64,000 bases of DNA, taken from the NCBI GenBank assembly GCA_019636385.1, contig JAHBXT010000004.1:310001-374000 (forward strand), read 5' to 3'. Numbering within the stretch: the first letter of the stretch is position 1; each line of letters begins with the position of its first letter. Positions 43,162-49,286 of the stretch are shown piece by piece. The stretch is from Pirellulaceae bacterium (GTDB taxonomy: Bacteria > Planctomycetota > Planctomycetia > Pirellulales > Pirellulaceae). The notes below the pieces were generated by a model. That model worked only from the letters and a program-made list of their open reading frames with translations, was not told the origin of the DNA and ran no database searches. The position numbers and the translations under genes are program-made.

Positions 43162-43279
43162 CGCATTTTCGCTGTCGTGGCTAGAGGCTGTCCGGTATGG
43201 GGATGCGTGTGGGCATTGGCAGTATATTTTGGAAAAAAATCGCCTTGAATAACCGTACACTGATTTCGTAGGGTGGGGC

Positions 43280-43492
43280 ATGCGGGGCCAGTGCTATTGG
43301 TTACTGCAACTGGACAACCTATTTACAAACGACAGCACGTTGGCGAAAGAACTTGGACTCAAGGCAAGAGCCAAGGCAGCCGATCTGGCATCACCATCAA
43401 ATTGGACGGCTAACCCAGTTCCGCATATTCATATTGCTGATGCGGGCAGAGGTGGCCATATTCCTGTAATGATTGGAGTGCTGCCGCGATGA
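43280..43492 (+). CDS. Toxin-tip-like fragment (small hypothetical protein)
   Basis: 70 residues. The end, NWTANPVPHIHIADAGRG then GHIPVMIGVLPR, has the P-V-P-H-I-H-x and G-H-I-P-V ending that I associate with nuclease-type tips of bacterial polymorphic toxins; no stronger assignment is possible. The frame is blocked by a stop at 43250, so it is an orphan tip rather than the end of a large protein. Its stop overlaps the start of the next small gene (ATGA), the usual toxin-immunity coupling. The IS4-type element begins about 20 bases after the pair. Confidence 0.45.
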   Translation: MRGQCYWLLQLDNLFTNDSTLAKELGLKARAKAADLASPSNWTANPVPHIHIADAGRGGHIPVMIGVLPR

Positions 43493-43644
43493 GTGAAGAA
43501 AATTTGGAATTGATTGTCGAGTCCCTTAAAAAGCACTCCAGCGGAACAGTCGATGGAAAGTGCATGTCTAATTTCGCTCACGTGTGCCTGCAATTGCGAA
43601 ATGGAGTACAAGTCAATTTAGATTCCAGTTTCGGAGATTACTAA
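43489..43644 (+). CDS. Small protein overlapping the toxin-tip-like gene
   Basis: 51 residues (MSEENLELIVESLKKHSSGT, then SNFAHVCLQLRNGVQVNLDS). Acidic, no known family. It overlaps the upstream gene by 4 bases and could be its immunity partner, or a truncated relic of one. The IS-like left terminal repeat starts 18 bases after its stop codon. Confidence 0.4.
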   Translation: MSEENLELIVESLKKHSSGTVDGKCMSNFAHVCLQLRNGVQVNLDSSFGDY

Positions 43645-43661
43645 TCCATTCGAGCAATTGA

Positions 43662-45221
43662 ACCACCCCTTTCAAGCTGTCATTAGCGAGAACTGGGGTT
43701 GGAGAGATTACCGCAACACTGTCAAAATGCCCAGAGTGTTGCAGGTTGGGATGAATGCTCGGTGATTAAGATTTAAAAGAACAGAATCCAACGGCAACAT
43801 GTAGAGTGACTGCGGAAGCACTGCGTACCAAGGAGGAACTAGCCATGTCGTTCGATAGCGTGTTGTCACGGTTTGCAGACCAAGCGCCTGTGGCCACGAT
43901 GGTTCGGGCTGCAATGGCCAACATATTATCGCCACGGGAACTGGATAAGATTTTTGAAGAGAGCCGGCAGCGGCAATATGAAGACAGGCTGCTATTTTCC
44001 AGTGTGGTTGGCCTGCTGACACTGGCGGTAACTAAAACGCAGCCATCGCTGCATGCGGCATATCAATCACAGCGAGAAGAGCTGGGGGTATCGGTAGCCG
44101 CGTTGTATGACAAGCTGTCGGGAGTGGAGCTTACAGTAACACGTGAATTGGTAAGGCGCACGGCCCAGCGGATGTCAGCGGTCATCGACGCGTTGGGCGA
44201 GACCAGAAGACCGGTGCTCCAGGGGTATAGCACATTGTATCTGGATGGCAGCCATCTAGGGGCTACCGAGCACCGGCTCAAACCGACGCGGAGCGTGCGT
44301 GGCGGACCGCTGCCGGGATTAGGCTTAGTCGTACTGGATGGAGACCGAAGGATCATCAGCGATTTCTTGCCATGCGTCGACGGACAGGCACAAGAGCGCA
44401 GCCTGATGTTGGACTGGATCGACCTGCTGGCCGAAGACCAGTTGTGGATAGCCGACCGTAATTTCTGTACCAAACAGATGATCTTCGAGTGCCATAGAAA
44501 CAAAGCCAGTTTTTTGTTGCGGCATCACGGAGGATTAGCCTGCCGAGCTGAAGGGCCAGAGTGCGAGATAGCCAGATGCGCAACTGGCACGGTACAGGAG
44601 CAAACGGTCAGCGTGGAGGGAGACACGCTAGGTGCGGTCACGCTACGGCGGATTACGATCAAGCTAGACAAGCCGACAACCGATGGCACCCAGGAGATTT
44701 GTCTACTGACGAATCTGCCTACGGAGGTTTCAGCGTCCAAGTGCGCAGACCTGTATCATACCCGGTGGGACATCGAAGCGGCCTTCGGAGAGATTGCTTC
44801 ATCGCTACGCGGGGAGATCGACACGCTGTGCTATCCGGCGGCCGCGTTGTTGGGTTACGCCATAGGACTGGTAACGTACAACTTGCTGGCCGTGGCCCAA
44901 GCAGCCATGAGTGTGGTGCATGGTCGCCAGATGGTTGAGGAGAATGTATCGAGTTACCATATGGCCAACGAAGTGGCCACGACCTGGACGGGATTAGAGA
45001 TAGCGATACCAGACAGCCAATGGCAAGCTCGCTTTGCGAAACTTGATGCAGCTCAGTTGGCGCACAAGCTACTTGCACTTGCGCACAAGACACAGCTGCG
45101 TCGGTATCAGAAGCATCGACGGGGACCAAAGAAACCTACCCCCAAACGCCAAGGCACTCAGCCCCATGTCAGTACCGCTCGACTGCTTGCTCAACAGAAC
45201 TAACACCTTGAAAGGGATGGT
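43662..45221 (+). mobile_element. IS4-family-like insertion sequence, about 1560 bp
   Basis: A DDE transposase gene is flanked by near-perfect inverted repeats: ACCACCCCTTTCAAGCTGT at 43662-43680 and its counterpart ACCATCCCTTTCAAGGTGT (reverse complement of 45203-45221), matching at 17 of 19 bases. The transposase stop codon lies at the start of the right repeat. Clear target-site duplication was not found around either end, so the exact termini could shift by a few bases or an older rearrangement may have occurred. The element sits between the small toxin-tip pair and a membrane protein gene. Confidence 0.8.
43845..45203 (+). CDS. IS4-type DDE transposase
   Basis: 452 residues with the complete catalytic triad in IS4-type context: Asp134 (STLYLDGSHLGATE), Asp204 (QLWIADRNFCTKQM) and Glu311 in the Y-x2-R-W-x-I-E motif (YHTRWDIEAAFGEIASSLRG). 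The basic C-terminus (RRYQKHRRGPKKPTPKRQ) is DNA-binding-like. AAGGAGG lies just upstream of ATG 43845, so this start is preferred to GTG 43806. The frame is intact, so the element may still be active. Confidence 0.92.
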   Translation: MSFDSVLSRFADQAPVATMVRAAMANILSPRELDKIFEESRQRQYEDRLLFSSVVGLLTLAVTKTQPSLHAAYQSQREELGVSVAALYDKLSGVELTVTRELVRRTAQRMSAVIDALGETRRPVLQGYSTLYLDGSHLGATEHRLKPTRSVRGGPLPGLGLVVLDGDRRIISDFLPCVDGQAQERSLMLDWIDLLAEDQLWIADRNFCTKQMIFECHRNKASFLLRHHGGLACRAEGPECEIARCATGTVQEQTVSVEGDTLGAVTLRRITIKLDKPTTDGTQEICLLTNLPTEVSASKCADLYHTRWDIEAAFGEIASSLRGEIDTLCYPAAALLGYAIGLVTYNLLAVAQAAMSVVHGRQMVEENVSSYHMANEVATTWTGLEIAIPDSQWQARFAKLDAAQLAHKLLALAHKTQLRRYQKHRRGPKKPTPKRQGTQPHVSTARLLAQQN

Positions 45222-45226
45222 GTAGT

Positions 45227-46273
45227 ATGTCTATGGCTATGCAAGGTCAACGTCTAAGAAGCATCCTTTCTAACTTTCTCAGTGTTTCAGTTATATTCTT
45301 GCTTTTTGCTATGCTGCCGACCGATCGGCTATTGAGCCAGGAGGGGATGGTAAATGCGCAACAACAAGCTCGTCTAATTGAGGCAATGAAGCAATTAGAG
45401 AAAATGTCGCGAGTAACGTCAGGTCGTGGGAAGTTTCGGTTCGAGAATCGTTTTTCCAACCCGAAGCGTGAGGAGCTACTAAGACTCTACGAAATTGCGG
45501 TGCTAGGCGGTAGTCACATAAAGTCGCTCGAACAGTCTGTGGAAAAGTCAGCAGTAACGGGCGTTGAGACGCTGAGAGTCATGAATCCGGATTATTGCTT
45601 TGTACTCACGCGTGCTAATGGTGGTCCATACTCAATAATGGATGTCCAAAAATACGGTCGAAGTGAATTAGATGACCGAGAGATCGCGATTCGTAAAGCT
45701 GAGGCCAGTACTATTTTTTGGGCTTATGTGTTCTATGGTAGGCCTGTTTGGGAGTTGTTGAGGCATCCGGACTGCAAGTTGTTGAGCATTGAGTCGTCGT
45801 TAACCACGACAGGGCAGGAAATGGTGCGCGTCGATTTTGAATTTGCGCCTCAAGAAAAGAAATTTCTAGCTGTAGACTTTGGGATTAAGGATGGTTACAT
45901 CGTTTTCTCTCCAGATGATGGTTGGAAGATGGTAAGGTATTGCAGAGGTTATTGTCACGGACAGGATCCGAATACTCCAACTGACCCTAGAGTAACAAAA
46001 GCGACGGCTGAAGATTCCCCTTCAGATCAATTGGCGTTTTGCAAATTAGGTGTTATCGAGTGCCCTGCTGCCAAGCCTCCGAATGAGGGCGAAAACCACT
46101 TGATTTGCACCCAATCAAGCTATACCCCTGTACCAAAAGAGGAGTTTTATCTTAGCCACTACGGGTTTCCCGAGCCAAACTTTGGATCGAAGCGATACTG
46201 GCTGTGGATGTTGGGAGGATTGATTGGTGGAATTGCGTGCATCGTCGCGTCAAGGCGGTTGTTGAAACGGTAG
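45227..46273 (+). CDS. Signal-peptide and C-terminal-TM hypothetical protein
   Basis: 348 residues. A signal peptide (FLSVSVIFLLFAMLPTDRLL) is followed by an extracytoplasmic part with no known family; the last 30 residues hold a membrane helix (WMLGGLIGGIACIVASRRLL). The soluble part (KLLSIESSLTTTGQEMVRVD, DFGIKDGYIVFSPDDGWKMV) has the alternating-strand look of a lipoprotein-sorting-type beta fold and contains several cysteines (YCRGYCHG). The start codon lies 5 nt after the IS right repeat, whose AAAGGGATGG supplies the only ribosome-binding-site-like sequence. The base composition is visibly more AT-rich than the surrounding core genes. Confidence 0.65.
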   Translation: MSMAMQGQRLRSILSNFLSVSVIFLLFAMLPTDRLLSQEGMVNAQQQARLIEAMKQLEKMSRVTSGRGKFRFENRFSNPKREELLRLYEIAVLGGSHIKSLEQSVEKSAVTGVETLRVMNPDYCFVLTRANGGPYSIMDVQKYGRSELDDREIAIRKAEASTIFWAYVFYGRPVWELLRHPDCKLLSIESSLTTTGQEMVRVDFEFAPQEKKFLAVDFGIKDGYIVFSPDDGWKMVRYCRGYCHGQDPNTPTDPRVTKATAEDSPSDQLAFCKLGVIECPAAKPPNEGENHLICTQSSYTPVPKEEFYLSHYGFPEPNFGSKRYWLWMLGGLIGGIACIVASRRLLKR

Positions 46274-46295
46274 AGGGACATGTCTGAATCTGCGA

Positions 46296-47273
46296 ATGAA
46301 TGGTGCCACCCATATACTGTTGTTCCTGGCCGATCTGACGCGCAGCCAGAGCTGGTCGCGGGATGCACAGGGCAATTGGACCGCGTTAACCAATGAAGAT
46401 GGCGACGCGCAGAGTCGCACACACAACGCGCAGAACCAGATAACGCAGGTTGGCTCGGCAACGCTCAGCTACGATGCTGCTGGCAACATGACTACCGACG
46501 AGCAAGGTCGAACGCTGGTGTATGACGCCTGGAATCGCTTGGCGCGCGTGCAGAACGGCTCTACCACTGTTTCACAGTACCAATATGACGGACTGAAGCG
46601 ACGGATTGTCGAGCAGCAGGGCGCGCAGACGCCGCGCGTGCTGTACTACTCGGCCAACTGGCAAGTGCTTGAAGAGCGCCAAAGCGGCCCTGCGGTGGCC
46701 TCGCATGTCTGGAGCCCCGTCTACGTCGATGCACTGGTCGCCAGCGACCGCGACGCCGACGGCAACACTGGCAATGGCCTGGAGCAGCGACTCTACGCGC
46801 TGCACGACGCCAACTTCAATGTCACGGCGCTGTTGGGCACCGCTGGAGCCATTGTCGAACGTTATTATTATGAAGCCTACGGCCGCGCCACCGCCCTGAG
46901 CCCCGACTTCGTGCCGCTGGCTACTGGCCAGAGTGCCTACAACTGGCGCTACCTGCATCAAGGCGGGCAGCTCGACGCAGCCACCGGCCTGTACCACTTC
47001 CGCCACCGCGACCTCTCCACATCCCTCGGCCGCTGGCTGAACCTCGATCCGATCGGGTACCAGGGGAGTAAGTGGAACTTGTATGAGTATGTGGAGGGGA
47101 GACCGACTCGTTCGCTTGATCCAACTGGCGAATCCTCGATCCTATTCCCGCCGTTGATTCCTGATGATCCACCTGGAAAACCGAAGATTCCGTATCTCGA
47201 CATTCTGAAAGATATTATCCCAAACACAAAAAAGAATGGGAGGACGATATCAAAAGGAAGTGGGATGACATAA
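46296..47273 (+). CDS. Rhs/YD-repeat core, 5'-truncated with frameshifted tip (orphan, probably decayed)
   Basis: 325 residues. From about residue 13 it is an Rhs core: YD-type repeats (LSYDAAGNMTTDEQGRTLVY DAWNRLARVQ split over two repeats) and the conserved end of the core, RYLHQGGQLDAATGLYHFRH, LNLDPIGYQGSKWNLYEY and the closing G-x-P-x-x-x-x-D-P-x-G. A full Rhs protein has over a thousand residues before this; here only the last few repeats remain and the first 12 residues are unrelated. After DPTGE a short proline-rich tip begins and stops at TAA 47271. A -1 shift at AAAAAAG 47228-47234 opens another 60 codons, and a +1 shift near 47381 would return to the original frame, ending at TGA 47421. 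Two shifts point to decay. Confidence 0.7.
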   Translation: MNGATHILLFLADLTRSQSWSRDAQGNWTALTNEDGDAQSRTHNAQNQITQVGSATLSYDAAGNMTTDEQGRTLVYDAWNRLARVQNGSTTVSQYQYDGLKRRIVEQQGAQTPRVLYYSANWQVLEERQSGPAVASHVWSPVYVDALVASDRDADGNTGNGLEQRLYALHDANFNVTALLGTAGAIVERYYYEAYGRATALSPDFVPLATGQSAYNWRYLHQGGQLDAATGLYHFRHRDLSTSLGRWLNLDPIGYQGSKWNLYEYVEGRPTRSLDPTGESSILFPPLIPDDPPGKPKIPYLDILKDIIPNTKKNGRTISKGSGMT

Positions 47274-47403
47274 AACCAAAGAACCCGTTCAAGCCACTGC
47301 CTGATCCGAAAACTCCGGACAAGAAAAATCGCTGGATGCCCGACATGGATTTCGATTTCGACCTTGATGGAGACAGCCTTCCGCGATGTAGATTTCGATT
47401 TCA

Positions 47404-47523
47404 ATGGACGATTTAGAGGTTGAAACAGATGAGATGCAAATCCAAATAGACGAGAAAAATCTGCAATTGACTGCACTGTGCGATGCAGTATCGTGCCACG
47501 GTACGTTTATAGATGGCAGGTGA
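47404..47523 (+). CDS. Possible small acidic ORF after the Rhs tip
   Basis: 39 residues (MDDLEVETDEMQIQIDEK, ending CHGTFIDGR). No family and no clear ribosome binding site. It overlaps the end of the frameshifted tip reading. It could be a remnant of an immunity gene; a chance frame is just as likely. Confidence 0.2.
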   Translation: MDDLEVETDEMQIQIDEKNLQLTALCDAVSCHGTFIDGR

Positions 47524-47594
47524 ATGGAGTGCGCGGTGTTGCTGACTGCTACGGTGCAATCGTGCACCACTGAGCGCCTTGTTCTTGGGGACAA

Positions 47595-48791
47595 ATGATG
47601 GAATTGTACAGTGGGATTGGCCACGTTAGACACAATATCTGTGCCGGGATGCTCTTGGTGCTTACCCTTCAGTTAAGCGCGCCGGGACAAGAAGCTACTA
47701 GTCGGCTATCAGTACCTATTTTGCTCCAAGCACAATCTCATAGCTTGGACATGATTCGAGTTTCGGTCAAGGTTGGACCGCTCAGCGGCTATGCGGCAGT
47801 GGATACAGGCTCTAGCCACAACGCATTAGATGAAAGCGTTTTCGCGCTGATGTTGGAGCACTCTGCGAAGGCGAAGCGTCGCTTCGAGCAGACAAGTAGC
47901 CGGGATATCAAAGACATCGTTGTCAAATCGCTTGTGGTGGAGATTGATCAACAGCCACTATCGATAGAGCGGGTTAAGGTTATTGATATATCACGACTAT
48001 CGCGGGTCGTCGGCGGACCTGTTTTAGCAATTCTCGGTATACCATTTCTGCGCGATGGGGTTCTGGAGTATGATTCCGAAACCAAGACTTTTTCGCTTCA
48101 ACCTAACGCAACTCATGAGAGTTATGAGTTCCGGCAATCGTTTGTTTTTGACGCTTATGGCACACCGCAGACAGATGACTCGCCAATCGCGGAGCTCTTG
48201 AATTCCAAGTTTCTTATTGATACTGGTTGTAACACAGCTCTCACACTCACCCCCCAGACGTTTGAATCTGCGATCGCAAGAGGACTGGTCAAGCGCTTCG
48301 CAAAAGATGTAACGGTGGTCTCTGTAGAATCAACGAAAGCAATGCAGAGTGGCTTGCTGTCTACAGCCAGCGTTTGGGGAGCGAAATTTACGGAAGTTCC
48401 CGTAACCGTAAGCGACGAAAATGCGATTGGGCTGGCCTTACTGAGACAATTTGATTTCCAATTAGACTTCCTAAACCAGGTTCTGTACGCCAGGCCCGGT
48501 GCCTCTTGTCCAATTTGTCTTATGGCAGATCGAAGCGGTTTGTCACTCGAAGCAATCAACAGCGGCGTATCTGTTTTAGCCACGCGCGATCTCGATTCAA
48601 CTTCAGAATCAAGGGTAAGATCAAACGATCTACTGTTGAGCGTCGATAATAGGTTGGTAACTGATCGGGACTTGCTCAATTTGAGACAGCTATTCAGGGA
48701 ATCTAGTTGCGACTGGCTTCCAGTTAGGGTAGCACGAAACGGCGTGGAACTGGAGGCTGTTATAAGGCTAGCCAATCCCGACCTTAGATAG
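47595..48791 (+). CDS. Exported protein with two retropepsin-like domains and a PDZ-like domain
   Basis: 398 residues. A signal peptide (NICAGMLLVLTLQLSAPGQE) leads to two aspartic-protease-like halves: Asp70 in YAAVDTGSSHNALDE with LAILGIPFLRDGVLEYDSET, and Asp209 in KFLIDTGCNTALTLTP with GLALLRQFDFQLDFLNQVLY. D-T-G plus a hydrophobic G-I/L-L strand is the retropepsin-like signature; each half could pair with the other to form one active site. Residues about 316-395 resemble PDZ (SGVSVLATRDLD; DLLLSVDNRLVTDRDLLNLR; WLPVRVARNGVELEAVIRL). It is likely a periplasmic protease or a protease-like binding protein. It lies 170 bases after the Rhs remnant and is AT-richer than core genes. Confidence 0.75.
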   Translation: MMELYSGIGHVRHNICAGMLLVLTLQLSAPGQEATSRLSVPILLQAQSHSLDMIRVSVKVGPLSGYAAVDTGSSHNALDESVFALMLEHSAKAKRRFEQTSSRDIKDIVVKSLVVEIDQQPLSIERVKVIDISRLSRVVGGPVLAILGIPFLRDGVLEYDSETKTFSLQPNATHESYEFRQSFVFDAYGTPQTDDSPIAELLNSKFLIDTGCNTALTLTPQTFESAIARGLVKRFAKDVTVVSVESTKAMQSGLLSTASVWGAKFTEVPVTVSDENAIGLALLRQFDFQLDFLNQVLYARPGASCPICLMADRSGLSLEAINSGVSVLATRDLDSTSESRVRSNDLLLSVDNRLVTDRDLLNLRQLFRESSCDWLPVRVARNGVELEAVIRLANPDLR

Positions 48792-49286
48792 ATACCTCGT
48801 GAGGTGCGTACAGGTCATGCGATTTTATAACGCCGGCTCCCCCTGGGGACACAGCAATCTGTCGGGGGGCAGGTGGATTGCGAGAGTGATGTGGTGGGTT
48901 TGGAGGAAAAGGGCAAACGGCCCGATAAATAATCGTTAGTTTGTTCGTTGCTGCTTCGCTGCAACGCAATATTGCCCAAGTACGGCTTCCAGAAATTGGA
49001 ATTCAGCTAAGAGCAAGAAGCCCCAGCGATCCGCCGGGCAAGCCGGGAGCGCGATTTGTTTGCGCCAACAGGAATCTGTGAAGTGAGTCGGCTGTGTAGC
49101 TGGAAGCCGAACGATCCGCTGAGCGTGACAGCGGCGGGATTTTTTTGAACAGGCGGGTTGGGGGTCGACTCCCAAGTGAAGTATTCGAATCGTTGCTGGC
49201 GCGAGGGTGAACATTTGATGGCACTTCCCTGAGCCCTCGAAGGAAGTGCAGGCTGGACTTGGCCAGCCCCCGTATCTGCCTATGCT
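48792..49286. other. 495-base gene-poor stretch
   Basis: No convincing frame on either strand. CCGCT-N9-AGCGG at 49116-49134 is followed by CGGGA and seven T at 49140-49146, which could terminate rightward transcription, though about 330 bases past the protease gene. Two more hairpins lie at 49221-49268. Confidence 0.35.
49221..49268. terminator. Two adjacent hairpins at the end of the leftward small gene
   Basis: GCACTTCC (49221-49228) pairs exactly with GGAAGTGC (49242-49249), and GGCTGG-ACTTGG-CCAGCC follows at 49251-49268. They lie just beyond the stop codon (49287) of the leftward 79-residue gene. No T tract follows, so they may stabilise or end that transcript by another mechanism. Confidence 0.4.

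What the first reader, a model, noticed from the sequence alone, without database searches (positions are those of the whole stretch)
46296..47423. Orphan Rhs core whose tip needs two compensating frameshifts
Seen: the Rhs core is intact to its closing DPTGE, but the tip stops at 47271. A -1 move at the A-AAA-AAG heptamer (47228-47234) opens 60 codons encoding DIKPKNPFKPLPDPKTPD and a DMDFDFDLDGD motif. A +1 move near 47381 returns to the first frame and encodes a second such motif (RDVDFDFNGRF) before TGA 47421. The heptamer in zero frame is exactly the dnaX slippery site. Two shifts favour decay, but programmed -1 shifting alone is possible.
Basis: partly seen in the sequence, partly recalled or inferred. 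Interest (0 to 1): 0.6.

Follow-up and report, generated by a model that had tools for sequence, protein, structure and literature searches.

The report
Decaying 3' remnant of Rhs gene
This is a leftover tail end of a polymorphic-toxin-type (Rhs) gene, lying beside a transposase gene in a planctomycete genome; it has lost its front and its reading frame, and the 'slippery' A6G run is more likely where it broke than a working frameshift switch.

Summary
A Rhs core closes at DPTGE, frame 0 stops at TAA 47271-47273, an in-phase A-AAA-AAG lies at 47228-47234, the -1 frame is open 47168-47413, and a second D-x-DFDF motif lies in frame 0. Codon usage and GC phase also suggest a frame change near the heptamer, and probably one back near 47375. 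Programmed frameshifting is poorly supported. There is no Shine-Dalgarno-like stimulator upstream, the downstream RNA folds no better than shuffles (z=0.07), and no homologous tip was found in 241 family genomes or in samples of the order and class. The gene also lacks its 5' part. It begins mid-core with no good start site, inside a ~6.1-kb insertion absent from same-genus relatives. Its 46-residue frame-0 tip is shorter than all 33 relative tips in hand (70-329, median 175). The best explanation is a displaced or truncated Rhs 3' fragment in decay, the state Jackson et al. 2009 (PMC2935791) describe in Serratia. A base-calling indel cannot be excluded without reads, but about 20 kb of neighbouring orthologous genes shows no frameshift. 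Ordinary.

The parts
43662..45221 (+). Insertion-sequence-like unit: transposase ORF 43806-45203 (IS4 group, DDE) between imperfect 19-bp inverted repeats 43662-43680 / 45203-45221
   Evidence: PF01609 E 5.5e-9; NF033592 E 1.7e-31, just under its cut-off; inverted repeat I4; no obvious target duplication
45227..46273 (+). 348-aa hypothetical protein, AT-rich (46.8% GC); apparent N-terminal signal/TM segment and C-terminal TM segment (read by eye)
   Evidence: no family; paralogue in the same genome (45%) and relatives in a few others, none with an Rhs core within the ~1.5 kb flanks
46296..47273 (+). Truncated Rhs ORF, 325 aa: homology to other Rhs proteins begins at about residue 15 and the long N-terminal part is missing
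46326..47130 (+). 3' part of the Rhs core up to DPTG, 62.1% GC, strong codon signal in frame 0 (+67 bits)
47131..47423 (+). Variable tip region, 44.8% GC, with reading-frame changes
47228..47234 (+). A-AAA-AAG in phase with frame 0; probable place of the first frame change
   Evidence: no stimulator
47234..47416 (+). -1 frame continuation, open to TAG 47414; no homologue or domain found
47341..47402 (+). 19-nt imperfect direct repeat (47341-47359, 47384-47402), 43 nt apart, giving D-x-DFDF in two different frames

Best explanation
A non-functional, decaying 3' fragment of an Rhs gene: a dissociated tip with partial core. Shown: it lacks the Rhs N-terminal part, starts mid-core with no good start site, lies next to a transposase gene inside a ~6-kb insertion absent from same-genus relatives, and its tip frame is broken. 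Inferred: recombination or transposition brought the fragment here without its 5' part. With no constraint left, indels accumulated, one at the A6 run (a usual place for polymerase slippage) and a second about 150 nt on.
For: Homology begins at query residue ~15 in relatives whose reading frames continue far upstream (open frames up to ~2,500 aa). Upstream of ATG 46296 there is no clear RBS, and the RBS-like AGGGA precedes an ATG in another frame at 46280. The nearest resident Rhs genes share only 29-38% identity, and there is no DNA copy elsewhere. In four same-genus genomes the flanking genes (CNNM pair, then the orf49287/TPR/orf51062 group) sit next to each other without these 6.1 kb. The frame-0 tip of 46 residues is below the minimum (70) of 33 relatives. 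The codon signal moves from frame 0 to -1 and probably back to 0. High-GC core with low-GC tip (62 versus 45%), and silent fragments with frameshifts, match Jackson et al. 2009, PMC2935791.
Against: No intact homologue of this tip was found, so the original frame is unknown. The codon signal over ~50 codons is modest. The core part itself keeps an undamaged frame of 278 codons, so either the decay is recent or the ORF is still expressed.
Confidence: 0.75

Rival explanations
1. One or both frame changes are base-calling or assembly indels in an otherwise open truncated Rhs tip.
For: A6 runs are classic indel sites, the genome is in 8 contigs and 97% complete, and reads are not available. PMC3711429 treats unclustered frameshifts as often errors.
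Against: About 20 kb of orthologous neighbouring genes shows no frameshift, although the window holds 37 homopolymer runs of 6 or more. The second change is not at a homopolymer. The 5' truncation would remain.
Confidence: 0.13
2. Programmed -1 ribosomal frameshifting at A-AAA-AAG yields a second, longer tip.
For: The heptamer is exact and in phase, and A6G is among the strongest motifs in E. coli when stimulators are present (PMC4066793). The -1 frame has coding-like codon use.
Against: No SD-like sequence in the 30 nt upstream. The downstream fold is no better than shuffles (z 0.07). No homologous tip keeps the site. The chance of such a heptamer here is about 1%, and a decay indel would itself favour an A-run. 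The -1 product would still be a fragment without the N-terminal part.
Confidence: 0.05
3. Frame 0 is the native short end of a small working protein and the -1 open frame is coincidence.
For: Other short tips exist (70-85 aa), and the open -1 frame alone has a 3.8% chance.
Against: Frame-0 codon score falls to -5.5 bits after the heptamer, and the tip is shorter than all 33 relatives.
Confidence: 0.07

Closest known systems
Dissociated (orphan) rhs core fragments with tips, Jackson et al. 2009, PMC2935791
   Same: Partial high-GC core of arbitrary length followed by a low-GC unique tip, usually without a start site, some with frameshifts or premature stops
   Different: Here it is not downstream of an intact rhs gene of near-identical core; it lies alone beside an IS-like unit
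Planctomycete Rhs-core ORFs in the same family (L009, L028, L031) and in other planctomycetes (L053)
   Same: Same core type (33-54% identity) and often also short on the 5' side (9 of 34 have a stop within 125 codons upstream of the match)
   Different: Their tips are longer (155-224 residues in these four) and open in one frame
dnaX-type and IS-type programmed -1 frameshift sites (A-AAA-AAG)
   Same: The same heptamer in the same phase
   Different: No SD stimulator, no downstream structure, no conservation shown

Membership tests
Rhs / YD-repeat protein | Rhs-associated core closing in DPxG with YD repeats | tested here: met
   TIGR03696 58 bits (cut-off 32.5), PF05593 39.7 bits (cut-off 22)
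Rhs / YD-repeat protein | Full-length gene with N-terminal region and repeat shell | tested here: not met
   Only 325 aa; homology starts mid-core
Dissociated rhs fragment | Partial core plus dissimilar tip, GC drop from core to tip, poor start site | tested here: met
   62.1% versus 44.8% GC; no clear RBS for ATG 46296
Dissociated rhs fragment | Lies downstream of an intact rhs with near-identical core | tested here: not met
   No copy in the genome; resident Rhs 29-38% identical, none adjacent
Programmed -1 frameshift gene | In-phase X-XXZ-ZZN heptamer in the overlap of the two frames | tested here: met
   A-AAA-AAG 47228-47234; overlap 47168-47270
Programmed -1 frameshift gene | Upstream SD-like or downstream structural stimulator | tested here: not met
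   (nested structures only; pseudoknots not modelled)
Programmed -1 frameshift gene | Site and both frames conserved in homologues | tested here: inconclusive
   No homologous tip found in 241 family genomes or in samples of ~400 genomes each of order and class

The most novel reading that the evidence does not exclude
An orphan Rhs tip uses the A-AAA-AAG site to make two alternative C-termini, which would be a case of recoding used for tip variation.
Probability: 0.03. Interest if true: 0.6.

Novelty: already known. Interest (0 to 1): 0.1.

Why it matters
As a decaying Rhs remnant it matters little. It extends the pattern of dissociated, degenerating Rhs tips from enterobacteria to a planctomycete, and shows that an exact slippery heptamer in a broken gene should not be read as recoding without a stimulator and conservation.

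Tried and rejected
Homologues of the -1 frame tip: none convincing. The best hit in the family, at E 0.001, lies in a different, DPF-rich context with no Rhs core, and weak hits at E ~0.008 in the class were not followed. Pfam, PHROGs and PDB gave nothing significant for the tip. Relatives of the two neighbouring ORFs as partners of Rhs: no Rhs core within their ~1.5 kb flanks. Genome-contig scan for close relatives: 8 loci, best 54% identity in the core, no tip match. The one frameshift flagged in the survey is an antisense ORF spanning two genes and was judged an artefact. Promoter and terminator scan: at chance level.

Full report
Observation. Frame 0 runs from ATG 46296 to TAA 47271-47273. 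The in-phase A-AAA-AAG is at 47228-47234. The -1 frame is open 47168-47413 and frame 0 reopens from 47274 to TGA 47421. The two D-x-DFDF motifs are one 19-nt imperfect repeat, 43 nt apart, hence in different frames; a 12-nt repeat so close is unlikely by chance (0.07%). A codon model trained on 35 long ORFs of the window (46.6 kb, island excluded) follows frame 0 through the core (+67 bits). It then prefers the -1 frame over 47234-47380 (+6.4 against -14.6 for frame 0; the +1 frame scores +4.9 but has three stops), and frame 0 over 47375-47420 (+1.5 against -9.6). GC by codon position in 47234-47380 fits only the -1 frame. So the frame changes are probably real, with modest statistics.

What the gene is. 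Residues 192-278 are the Rhs-associated core (TIGR03696, E 1e-15), with YD repeats before it. Homologues in 64 of 241 family genomes match from about residue 15 on, many within far longer open frames, and in those inspected with a long frame the homologue carries on upstream with Rhs-type sequence while the window does not. The 5' part is therefore missing. No clear ribosome-binding site precedes ATG 46296; the AGGGA upstream precedes an ATG in another frame at 46280. There is no DNA copy elsewhere in the genome, and the resident Rhs genes are only 29-38% identical. The frame-0 tip, 46 residues past the core, is shorter than all 33 comparable tips in hand (70-329, median 175).

Setting. In four same-genus genomes (L074, L076, L077, L078) the two CNNM-type genes are followed directly by the relatives of orf49287, the TPR gene and orf51062; the other three regions fetched show the CNNM pair but not the downstream group. 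In the window 6.1 kb lies between them: an IS4-group transposase ORF with imperfect 19-bp inverted repeats, a hypothetical ORF, the Rhs remnant, and an aspartyl-protease-like ORF. The core is 62.1% GC and the tip 44.8%.

Programmed frameshifting. The motif is right (A-AAA-AAG is among the strongest in E. coli with stimulators, PMC4066793), but no SD-like element lies in the 30 nt upstream and the downstream 76 nt fold no better than shuffles (z 0.07). No homologous tip was found in 241 family genomes or in order and class samples, so conservation cannot be shown. An in-phase heptamer in the overlap has about 1% chance in local composition, but indels concentrate at A-runs, so decay predicts it too.

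Sequencing error. Orthologues from same-genus genomes were compared with the window; about 20 kb (23.1-43.1 kb) plus 49.9-51.5 kb is covered, with no real frameshift, though the window has 37 runs of six or more identical bases. This does not exclude an error here; reads are needed.

Conclusion. The features match dissociated rhs fragments as described by Jackson et al. 2009 (PMC2935791): partial core, unique low-GC tip, poor start, and in Serratia two of three fragments degenerated by frameshifts or stops. One feature differs: there is no intact parent rhs with near-identical core upstream. The best account is an acquired, truncated Rhs 3' end in decay.

Noticed in passing
43662-45221: IS-like unit: IS4-group transposase (NF033592 just below its cut-off) between imperfect 19-bp inverted repeats, without an obvious target duplication.
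   Followed up: partly
43162-49286: Insertion of about 6.1 kb between genes that are adjacent in four same-genus genomes.
   Followed up: partly
47404-47523: Short ORF (39 codons, + strand, frame +1) overlapping the tip end with strongly gene-like codon use over 47400-47490 (+10.9 bits); no homologue in Pfam or PHROGs.
   Followed up: partly
47595-48791: Aspartyl-protease-like (retropepsin-type) ORF with a weak C-terminal PDZ match; related genes in only two other genomes of the family.
   Followed up: partly
45227-46273: Hypothetical protein with a 45% paralogue in the same genome (G000:C4:94683-95651) and four matches in one same-genus genome; function unknown.
   Followed up: partly
L004 886-2637; L005: Resident Rhs ORFs of the same genome (contig C1, ~997-999 kb) with a GHSLGG motif in the tip, typical of class 3 lipases.
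   Followed up: no
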